NCBI GenBank assembly: GCA_016197225.1 | Contig: JACPWC010000022.1 | Coordinates: 1 to 64,000 of the forward strand | Direction of reading: 5' to 3' | Source of the DNA: Chloroflexota bacterium | Lineage (GTDB): Bacteria > Chloroflexota > Anaerolineae > Anaerolineales > VGOW01 | DNA length: 64,000 bases | Position numbers and translations under genes: made by a program | Shown here: positions 12,014 through 32,967 of the stretch, piece after piece | Layout of the letters: each line of letters begins with the position of its first letter | How positions within the stretch are numbered: position 1 is the first letter of the stretch | Notes under the pieces: generated by a model | Databases searched by the model: none | The model's input: the letters and a program-made list of their open reading frames with translations, nothing else | Told to the model about the DNA's origin: nothing

Positions 12014-13003
12014 TTACAGCGGTAATCCCACCGCTTCTTTCACCTCAGCCAACGTTTGCTCGGCCAGACCTTGCGCTCGCCTGGCTCCGTCGTGCAGAAC
12101 GTCCCACACATGATCCGGGTTCCTGGCAAGCTCGGCCCGTTTCTCGCGAAACGGCTCGAGGTGGGCGTTGATATTCTTGGCCAGAATCTTCTTGCAGTCC
12201 ACACAGCCAATGCCGGCCACGCGGCACTCGCGGTCAATCATCGGTAATTCGCGCGGCGCGGGCGAAAAGGTCTTGTGGAGAGTGAAGACGTTGCAGACCT
12301 CCGGGCGGCCGGGGTCGGTGCGGCGCTGGCGTTGCGGGTCAGTCACCATCGTCATCACTTTGGCCTGAGTCTCTTCGGGCGTGGCCGCCAACTCGATGTG
12401 GTTGTTCAGGCTCTTGCCCATCTTTTGCTGGCCGTCGGTGCCCAGTACTTTGGGATACTCGGTGTTCTTCATCTGCGGCTCGATCAGCACTTGCTTCCCG
12501 GTGCGGAAGTTGAAGGTGCGCACGACCTCGCGGGCAAACTCGATGTGTGACGCCTGATCAATGCCGACCGGAACCGTGTCGGCCTTGTACAGGGTGATGT
12601 CCGCCGTCATCAGCACCGGATAGCCGACGAGGCCGTAGTTGATGTTGTGAGGATGAAGCGCCACTTTCTCTTTGAACGTCGGCAGATCGGTGAGCTTGCC
12701 GAGCGGGGTGAACATGGACAGGATGGTGTGCAGTTCGGTCACCTGCGGCACGTGGCTCTGCACAAACATGATCGTCTCGTTCGGGCGGATACCGGCGGCC
12801 AGCCAGTCCAGGGCCATCTCGGCGGTGTTCTGCCGCAAGTCCTCAAACTCGTCCATCGTGGTCAGCGCGTGCAAATCTACAATGCAGTACACGCACTCGT
12901 AGTCATCCTGTAGAGCTACGTAGTTTTTGATCGCGCCCAAATAATTGCCTAAGTGCTGGCGGCCGGTGGGCCGCGCCCCCGAAAACACTCGTCCTTTTTT
13001 CAT
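12014..13003 (-). CDS. trpS: Tryptophanyl-tRNA synthetase with a [4Fe-4S]-type cysteine motif
   Basis: A 329-residue class I synthetase charging tRNA-Trp. The HIGH-type motif is QHLGNYLGA (about 16-24) and the KMSKS-type motif is KMGKS (194-198); the DLHALT and GYPVLMTADI segments are typical. Cys237, Cys260, Cys267 and Cys270 form C-x22-C-x6-C-x2-C. This is the spacing that binds a [4Fe-4S] cluster near the anticodon-binding region in Thermotoga maritima TrpRS. The gene lies 7 bases downstream of the selenoprotein gene on the same strand and is probably cotranscribed with it. Confidence 0.93.
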   Translation of the reverse strand: MKKGRVFSGARPTGRQHLGNYLGAIKNYVALQDDYECVYCIVDLHALTTMDEFEDLRQNTAEMALDWLAAGIRPNETIMFVQSHVPQVTELHTILSMFTPLGKLTDLPTFKEKVALHPHNINYGLVGYPVLMTADITLYKADTVPVGIDQASHIEFAREVVRTFNFRTGKQVLIEPQMKNTEYPKVLGTDGQQKMGKSLNNHIELAATPEETQAKVMTMVTDPQRQRRTDPGRPEVCNVFTLHKTFSPAPRELPMIDRECRVAGIGCVDCKKILAKNINAHLEPFREKRAELARNPDHVWDVLHDGARRAQGLAEQTLAEVKEAVGLPL

Positions 13004-13010
13004 CGTTGAA

Positions 13011-13274
13011 TCATCCGTTTCCTTCCGTTTTATCCGTTGTCAGTTTTTCCGCTACCAGCGCCGCAATCTCCCCCGGTTCAACGTGGCGATGCGTAGCAAG
13101 CTTGGAATAGATCAGTTCGCCATTCAGACTGACCTCGAACCGCCCTCCTTCTGACGGGACGATGCGCACCTCTGAAAGTTGCGGCTCGAATTTGGTCAGC
13201 AGTTCGCCCGCCAAACTGGCGGCGCGGGCCGTGTAGTGTCAAACCGCGCAGTAAACAATCTCAATGGTGTGCAT
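13011..13274 (-). CDS. SelW/Rdx-family selenoprotein with in-frame UGA (CxxU)
   Basis: An 87-residue thioredoxin-like protein of the SelT/SelW/SelH (Rdx) family if the TGA at 13239-13241 is read as selenocysteine. Codons from the ATG at 13274 give HTIEIVYCAV, then UGA, then HYTARAASLAGELL, which matches the family pattern YCxxC.Y..RA..LA.ELL. Sec therefore sits at residue 12 as the second member of CxxC, where SelW proteins carry it. The rest (VRIVPSEGGRFEVSLNGE and LIYSKLATHRHVEPGEI) is typical Rdx. A GU-loop hairpin follows the UGA, and a -10 box lies 7 bases before the ATG. Conventional gene calling would keep only the 67 residues after the UGA. Confidence 0.8.
13208..13222 (-). promoter_or_regulatory. 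Candidate bacterial SECIS element
   Basis: On the minus strand CCGCCA-GTT-TGGCGG forms a 6-bp stem with a GUU apical loop, starting 16 bases after the UGA, so the loop is 22 bases from it. Bacterial SECIS elements are short hairpins just 3' of the UGA with GU in the apical loop. An alternative longer fold GCCCGC/GCGGGC uses the same region. Confidence 0.6.
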
Positions 13275-13281
13275 GGGCAAA

Positions 13282-13287
13282 AGTATA
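13282..13287 (-). promoter_or_regulatory. -10 box TATACT for the selenoprotein gene (leaderless)
   Basis: TATACT on the minus strand is separated from the ATG by 7 bases. It is divergent from, and only 22 bases away from, the -10 box of the IMPase gene. Confidence 0.5.
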
Positions 13288-13309: not shown

Positions 13310-13315
13310 TATACT
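13310..13315 (+). promoter_or_regulatory. -10 box TATACT for the IMPase gene (leaderless)
   Basis: TATACT is followed by 6 bases and then the ATG at 13322; there is no room for a ribosome binding site in the transcript. Confidence 0.55.
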
Positions 13316-13321
13316 GACTCT

Positions 13322-14110
13322 ATGTCTAATATTCTTTCCACCGCCACTTCCATTGCCCGTCGGGCCGGAGAAATTCTCAAAGAAAATAATGGCGACCGCC
13401 GCGTTGACTTCAAAGGCGAGATCGATCTCGTCACCGACTACGACCGCCGCTCCGAAGCCTTCATCGTCTCAGCCCTGGGTGAAGCTTTCCCCGACCACGC
13501 CCTGCGCGCTGAAGAAGGAAGCCGGGCCAACACCGGCGCCGATTACGAATGGCTGATTGACCCTCTCGACGGCACCACCAATTTTGCGCACGGACTGCCA
13601 ATTTTCAGCGTCAGCATGGCGCTGTTGCATTGCGGTGAGCCAGTCGTCGGCGTGGTTTACGATCCGTCGCGTGACGAATGTTTCACCGCCGAGAAGGGCG
13701 GCGGGGCATTTCTCAACAGCCACAAGTTGCAGGTGTCGGCCACCCCGACGCTCGACGCGGCTCTGCTCGTCACCGGCTTCCCTTACGACATCCGCACTAA
13801 TCCCTACGACAATCTTGCCCAGTTCAATCACTTTGCCGTGCGAGCGCGGGCTGTGCGCCGCCTGGGTTCGGCCGCATTGGATTTGGCTTATGTAGCCGCA
13901 GGCCGTTTGGATGGCTATTGGGAATTTCGCATGAAGCCGTGGGACATTGCCGCCGGGGCGCTGATGGTGCGCGAAGCCGGTGGACGGGTGACTGATCATA
14001 ACAATCAGCCAACATTTGTGCCTGATGCCGCGCTCCTGGCCACGAACGGCCTGATTCACGACGCGATGTTGAGAGTATTGCGCGAAGGCGAGAATGCGCC
14101 GCGACCGTAA
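13322..14110 (+). CDS. Inositol monophosphatase family protein
   Basis: A 262-residue Mg2+-dependent phosphatase of the IMPase/SuhB family, acting on inositol-1-phosphate or a related small phosphate ester. The metal motif EEGS is near residue 62, the signature WLIDPLDGTTNF is at about 76-87, and the second signature WDIAAGALMVREAGG is near 207-221. All three catalytic Asp/Glu positions are present. It begins a plus-strand run (IMPase, enoyl-CoA hydratase, hydroxyacyl-CoA dehydrogenase). The ATG lies directly after a -10 box. Family members include CysQ and fructose-bisphosphatases, so the substrate is not fixed by sequence. Confidence 0.88.
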   Translation: MSNILSTATSIARRAGEILKENNGDRRVDFKGEIDLVTDYDRRSEAFIVSALGEAFPDHALRAEEGSRANTGADYEWLIDPLDGTTNFAHGLPIFSVSMALLHCGEPVVGVVYDPSRDECFTAEKGGGAFLNSHKLQVSATPTLDAALLVTGFPYDIRTNPYDNLAQFNHFAVRARAVRRLGSAALDLAYVAAGRLDGYWEFRMKPWDIAAGALMVREAGGRVTDHNNQPTFVPDAALLATNGLIHDAMLRVLREGENAPRP

Positions 14111-32004: not shown

Positions 32005-32967
32005 TTATCGGTTATACACTTCCCTATTCACGCAATGGGGCATTGGCTTCCCCTCCAACCCCGCCAGCAAATTCTCGCAAGCAAGCTCGGCCATGCGCTT
32101 GCGCGCCCCGCGCGTGGCCGAGCCGATGTGGGGCGTGATGAGGCAGTTGGGCAGACGATAAAGAGGGTGGTCGGCGGGCAGGGGTTCGGGGTCGGTCACA
32201 TCGAGGGCGGCCCCGGCGATCCAGCCTTCGCTCAGGGCGCGATGCAGGGCGGTCATATTCACTACGCCACCGCGCGCCGCGTTGACTAAAATCGCAGTCG
32301 GCTTCATCAGCCGCAAGGCGCGTTCGTCAATCAGGCGGCGAGTCTCCGACGAGAGCGGCAGGTGCAGGCTCACAAAGTCGCTCTGGCGAAGCAGGTCATC
32401 CAACGAGAGACGGCTGGCCCTGAGAGTCTGCTCCGCTTCTTGGTTGGCATTGCGGTTGGCGTAAACAATCTGCATTCCAAAAGCTTTGGCTCGCGTCGCC
32501 ACCGCGAGTCCGATTCGCCCCAGTCCCACAATTCCTAAAGTTGCTCCATTCAAGTCCGCGCCCAACCACGCTGTCGGCGTCCACGTTGCCCAGCGGCCTT
32601 CGCGGGCGTCGGCGCTGGCTTCGGGCAAACGCCGCGCGGCGGACAGCAAAAGCGCCATCGTCAAATCTGCCGTTGCTTCGGTGAGCACGCCGGGCGTGTT
32701 GCCAACGGGGATTCCGCGCCGGGTGCAGGCGGCCACATCAACGTTGTCTACGCCTACAGCCATGTTGCTTACCACGCGCAGGCGTTGCGCTCTGCTCAAA
32801 AGCACTTCGTCAACGCGAAGAGTGAGCAGGGTGAACAGGCCTTCGGCTTCGCTCAAGTGCGCTTCAAGTTCGGCAGGGCCGATCAAGAGTTGACAGCGAT
32901 CCTTCAGCATCGCCAGCCAGTCGTTGGGCAAGGCGTGAGAGACGATTGCAAGTGGCAGGTTGCTCAT
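32005..32967 (-). CDS. D-2-hydroxyacid dehydrogenase (glyoxylate/hydroxypyruvate reductase-like)
   Basis: A 320-residue NAD(P)-dependent enzyme. The substrate domain has VSNMAVGVDNVDV (about 66-78), the Rossmann motif is GIVGLGRIGLAVA (about 145-157), followed by HLPLSSETRRLID, NAARGGVVNM with the catalytic Arg, the Glu in TDPEPLPADHPLY, and the catalytic His in TPHIGSAT. This fits glyoxylate/hydroxypyruvate reductase (GyaR/GhrB-like), which recycles glyoxylate. The ATG overlaps the DUF92 stop by 4 bases, so the two genes are translationally coupled. Confidence 0.9.
   Translation of the reverse strand: MSNLPLAIVSHALPNDWLAMLKDRCQLLIGPAELEAHLSEAEGLFTLLTLRVDEVLLSRAQRLRVVSNMAVGVDNVDVAACTRRGIPVGNTPGVLTEATADLTMALLLSAARRLPEASADAREGRWATWTPTAWLGADLNGATLGIVGLGRIGLAVATRAKAFGMQIVYANRNANQEAEQTLRASRLSLDDLLRQSDFVSLHLPLSSETRRLIDERALRLMKPTAILVNAARGGVVNMTALHRALSEGWIAGAALDVTDPEPLPADHPLYRLPNCLITPHIGSATRGARKRMAELACENLLAGLEGKPMPHCVNREVYNR

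What the first reader, a model, noticed from the sequence alone, without database searches (positions are those of the whole stretch)
13208..13274. SelW/Rdx-type selenoprotein with an in-frame UGA and a nearby SECIS-like hairpin
Sequence: the frame from ATG 13274 has YCAV-UGA-HYTARAASLAGELL, the family CxxC site with the second Cys replaced by UGA at 13239-13241. The minus-strand hairpin CCGCCA-GUU-TGGCGG begins 16 bases after UGA with GU in the loop. A -10 box lies 7 bases before the ATG, and trpS follows 7 bases after the stop. Knowledge: SelT/SelW/SelH proteins carry Sec at this position, and bacterial SECIS hairpins sit just 3' of the UGA. Inference: an expressed Sec protein that an ordinary annotation reduces to a 67-residue fragment.
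Basis: partly seen in the sequence, partly recalled or inferred. Interest (0 to 1): 0.8.

Follow-up and report, generated by a model that had tools for sequence, protein, structure and literature searches.

The report
Ordinary bacterial SelW-like selenoprotein gene
The gene encodes a small redox protein in which an in-frame 'stop' codon is almost certainly read as selenocysteine; this is real and well supported, but it belongs to a selenoprotein family known in bacteria since at least 2005.

Summary
The observation and its interpretation both hold. On the minus strand, 13274-13011 encodes an 87-residue Rdx/SelW-family protein whose CxxC site reads Cys-Ala-Val-UGA. The genome carries selA, selB, selD (itself with an in-frame UGA) and tRNA-Sec. 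Of 61 genomes (own genome, 4 of its genus, 56 of its order), 36 carry the gene. All 36 have an in-frame UGA, at exactly this position in every locus read. The 17 genomes without selA all lack the gene. Alone, the hairpin folds no better than shuffled sequence. Across 37 sequences, however, 96% of its cells pair, 5 of 6 pairs have changes on both sides, and slid versions collapse. Cys homologues from the same phylum lack the stem. The hairpin meets all four constraints of the published bacterial SECIS model. So this is a genuine, probably expressed SelW-like selenoprotein, an ordinary member of a known bacterial family. Two minor extras: it lies just upstream of trpS in most of the order, and in its own genus it appears leaderless (TATACT seven bases before the start, no Shine-Dalgarno). 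Protein-level proof and the redox substrate are not available here.

The parts
13011..13274 (-). SelW-like (Rdx family) selenoprotein gene, 87 residues with Sec at residue 12; the terminal stop is also TGA
   Evidence: Pfam Rdx E 1.6e-21; TIGR02174 CXXU_selWTH 61 bits against a cut-off of 34; 36 of 61 genomes carry the homologue
13239..13241 (-). Sec-encoding UGA, second position of the CxxC/U redox site
   Evidence: TGA at the same codon in all 38 loci read; in-frame TGA in all 36 genomes with the gene
13208..13222 (-). bacterial SECIS hairpin CCGCCA-GUU-UGGCGG; the loop starts 22 nt after the UGA, with G then U
   Evidence: 96.4% of cells paired, 5 of 6 pairs with changes on both sides; Cys homologues lack it; model built without this sequence finds it at 5.8e-14, the next place in the genome at 0.43
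13282..13287 (-). TATACT -10-like box ending 7 nt before the ATG, no Shine-Dalgarno; suggests a leaderless mRNA
   Evidence: sequence; the box is conserved in L020 and L021, and as TATAAT in L026, of the same genus
12014..13003 (-). trpS, tryptophan--tRNA ligase, probably co-transcribed
   Evidence: TIGR00233 286 bits against a cut-off of 177; trpS lies beside the gene in 24 of 30 loci of the order

Best explanation
It is a SelW-like (Rdx) selenoprotein. SelB carries Sec-tRNA-Sec to the ribosome, recognises the hairpin just 3' of the UGA and has the UGA read as selenocysteine. This gives an 87-residue thioredoxin-like-fold protein with a Cys-Ala-Val-Sec redox site. It most likely acts as a small thiol/selenol oxidoreductase. 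The gene, Sec position, SECIS and machinery are shown by sequence. The decoding itself is inferred with high confidence. The redox role rests on family knowledge, and the substrate is unknown.
For: Family match and solved Rdx homologues. tRNA-Sec, selB, selA and selD all over family cut-offs in the same genome, with selD itself carrying UGA at a Sec position. UGA in all 36 order genomes that have the gene. Co-occurrence with selA: 36/8/0/17, Fisher p 2e-9. Covarying SECIS, absent from Cys homologues (p 3e-5). All bSECIS constraints of PMC13188914 met. In-frame, mostly third-position change on both sides of the UGA.
Against: No peptide or transcript data. The hairpin alone folds no better than shuffles. 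The redox substrate cannot be found from sequence. Co-occurrence counts are not corrected for phylogeny.
Confidence: 0.97

Rival explanations
1. The UGA is a true stop and the gene is a pseudogene, or translation restarts downstream to give the 67-residue fragment.
For: A TTG-start ORF of 67 aa exists.
Against: The same UGA is kept in 36 of 61 genomes that diverge down to about 43% identity. Codons upstream of it are conserved and drift mainly at third positions. The fragment would lack the redox site. The hairpin is under selection.
Confidence: 0.02
2. UGA is read as Trp or by non-specific readthrough (trpS lies next door).
For: Adjacent trpS.
Against: The family has Cys or Sec, never Trp, in the loci read here. 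UGA also ends this same gene. The dependence on selA and the SECIS covariation would be unexplained.
Confidence: 0.01

Closest known systems
SelW-like bacterial selenoproteins (Rdx, PF10262; TIGR02174 CXXU_selWTH)
   Same: Length, CxxU site, UGA followed by a bacterial SECIS, overall sequence; the family is listed with 48 genes in the Sargasso Sea set (PMC1088965) and 10 genes in sequenced bacteria in 2006 (PMC1794560)
   Different: Nothing essential; beside trpS, and apparently leaderless in this genus
Campylobacter-type SelT/SelW/SelH family protein (NF041051)
   Same: Same domain, 74.4 bits
   Different: Below that equivalog's cut-off of 88 bits, so not filed there

Membership tests
Rdx / SelT-SelW-SelH (PF10262, TIGR02174) | Profile match over the curated cut-off | tested here: met
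   76.7 against 22.6 bits and 61.2 against 34.2 bits
Rdx / SelT-SelW-SelH (PF10262, TIGR02174) | CxxC or CxxU motif after the first strand | tested here: met
   YCAVU, aligned without gaps with relatives
Bacterial selenoprotein | selA, selB, selD and tRNA-Sec in the genome | tested here: met
Bacterial selenoprotein | bSECIS: loop 3-9 nt, stem 4-16 bp, G in the first two loop positions, 16-37 nt from UGA to the loop, MFE <= -7.5 kcal/mol | tested here: met
   loop 3, stem 6, loop GUU, spacing 22, core MFE -8.6; constraints from PMC13188914
Bacterial selenoprotein | UGA aligned with Cys in homologues | tested here: met
   Seven Cys homologues from the same phylum have TGC at this position
Bacterial selenoprotein | Selenium in the purified protein | not testable with these tools
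   needs 75Se labelling or mass spectrometry
NF041051 SelTWH_Campy | Score over the equivalog cut-off | tested here: not met
   74.4 against 88 bits

The most novel reading that the evidence does not exclude
In this genus the selenoprotein mRNA is leaderless: transcription starts at or next to the ATG, and the Sec UGA is only 34-36 nt from the 5' end, so SelB-dependent recoding would follow leaderless initiation almost at once. The search for a published bacterial example was shallow.
Probability: 0.5. Interest if true: 0.35.

Novelty: new member of a known kind. Interest (0 to 1): 0.2.

Why it matters
It corrects a gene that a standard call would cut short. It also gives a clean comparative case in which an RNA hairpin inside a coding region dictates paired amino-acid choices: Ala..Ala, Val..Thr, Ile..Met and Thr..Val at residues 19 and 22. 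For the field it adds one more SelW-like selenoprotein lineage, conserved across an order of bacteria.

Tried and rejected
The Rfam scan of the window at gathering score gave nothing, so it gives no support for the hairpin. The single-sequence fold was not significant and was not used as evidence. Campylobacter-type equivalog membership was rejected (cut-off not met). Trp readthrough and pseudogene were rejected. The second tRNA-Sec model match on C38 is a tRNA-Ser by ARAGORN. The other SECIS-model matches in the genome, all at E above 0.4, were taken as chance. A first selD translation was in the wrong frame and was redone.

Full report
Observation. The minus strand from 13274 reads MHTIEIVYCAV-UGA-HYTARAASLAGELLTKFEPQ... 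and ends at TGA 13013-13011; the UGA is at 13241-13239 and the hairpin CCGCCA-GUU-UGGCGG at 13222-13208. The mechanical ORF list shows only a 67-residue fragment, 13011-13214. trpS starts 7 bases after the stop.

Family. With the UGA read as Cys, the protein matches Pfam Rdx at 1.6e-21 and TIGR02174 CXXU_selWTH above its cut-off; it is below the cut-off of the Campylobacter equivalog. Solved bacterial relatives exist, for example 3dex and 2fa8.

Machinery. The genome (4.8 Mb, 98% complete) has a tRNA-Sec confirmed by two programs, selB (326 bits, 356 with its C-terminal piece), selA (537 bits) and selD (371 bits). selD has one in-frame TGA in the context ASCAG-U-AAKLDP, which from general knowledge of SelD is its usual Sec/Cys site.

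Relatives. Of 61 genomes (the own genome, 4 of its genus, 56 of its order), 36 carry the gene. Every one of these has an in-frame TGA, and none of the 36 full-family matches is a Cys form; the loci that were read have it at exactly this codon. Genomes by SelW and selA: both 36 (one, G006, has only a contig-edge selA fragment), selA only 8, SelW only 0, neither 17; Fisher p 2e-9, not corrected for kinship. UGA forms are also found in Latescibacterota, Poribacteria, a Gemmatimonadetes genome and Alteribacillus. Over the wider phylum both UGA and Cys forms occur.

SECIS. Folded alone, the region is no better than its shuffles (z -0.5 to -0.6), and 6.1% of TGAs in the window have a comparable hairpin. 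Comparison decides. Over 37 distinct sequences 96.4% of cells pair (shuffled 87.3%, sd 1.0; 0 of 500 reach it), 30 cells have changes on both sides against 11 expected, and sliding the partner by 1-3 columns drops pairing to 23-58%. The loop G, at position 23 after the UGA, is invariant in that set. The residues encoded by the two stem arms co-vary as base pairing demands (Ala..Ala, Val..Thr, Ile..Met, Thr..Val). A model built from 26 relatives without the window finds the window site at 5.8e-14, with nothing else in the genome better than 0.43. That score also includes coding conservation. In the wider phylum, 23 UGA loci have 4-6 of the 6 pairs, while seven Cys loci have 2-4 (Mann-Whitney p 3e-5). 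The published bacterial SECIS constraints (PMC13188914) are all met.

Context and expression. trpS lies directly downstream in 24 of the 30 order loci fetched, and the divergent inositol-monophosphatase-family gene is kept within the genus. The start has TATACT 7 bases upstream and no Shine-Dalgarno. L020 and L021 keep the same arrangement and L026 has TATAAT, whereas several other families of the order have an AGGAG-type site. Such boxes precede only 0.5% of ATG/GTG in the window, but also the divergent gene at 13322 and the ATGs at 32967 and 56681. A leaderless mRNA is therefore likely, though not shown.

Function. The CxxU site and thioredoxin-like Rdx fold indicate a thiol/selenol redox protein (family knowledge). 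PMC1088965 notes a probable redox function, interaction with glutathione, and unclear exact role.

Novelty. SelW-like was the most abundant selenoprotein family in the Sargasso Sea set in 2005 (PMC1088965), and PMC1794560 (2006) lists it in several bacteria and argues that Sec is its original form. This is a well-supported new member of a known kind.

Noticed in passing
13282-13287 (-), 13310-13315 (+), upstream of 56681 (+) and of 32967 (-): -10-like boxes (TATACT/TATAAT) 6-7 nt before start codons without a Shine-Dalgarno: leaderless genes may be common in this genome.
   Followed up: partly
L018 (G000 contig C37), codon in ASCAG-U-AAK: selD of the same genome is itself a UGA-containing selenoprotein gene.
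   Followed up: yes
13011-13003 and loci L020-L047: selW-trpS adjacency is conserved in 24 of 30 order loci; the reason is unknown.
   Followed up: partly
L058-L060, L069, L072 (other classes of the phylum): Some UGA forms have a C in place of the first loop-closing A (CCACCCGTGCGGTGG), so a 5-pair stem with a slightly larger loop: a variant of the same SECIS.
   Followed up: no
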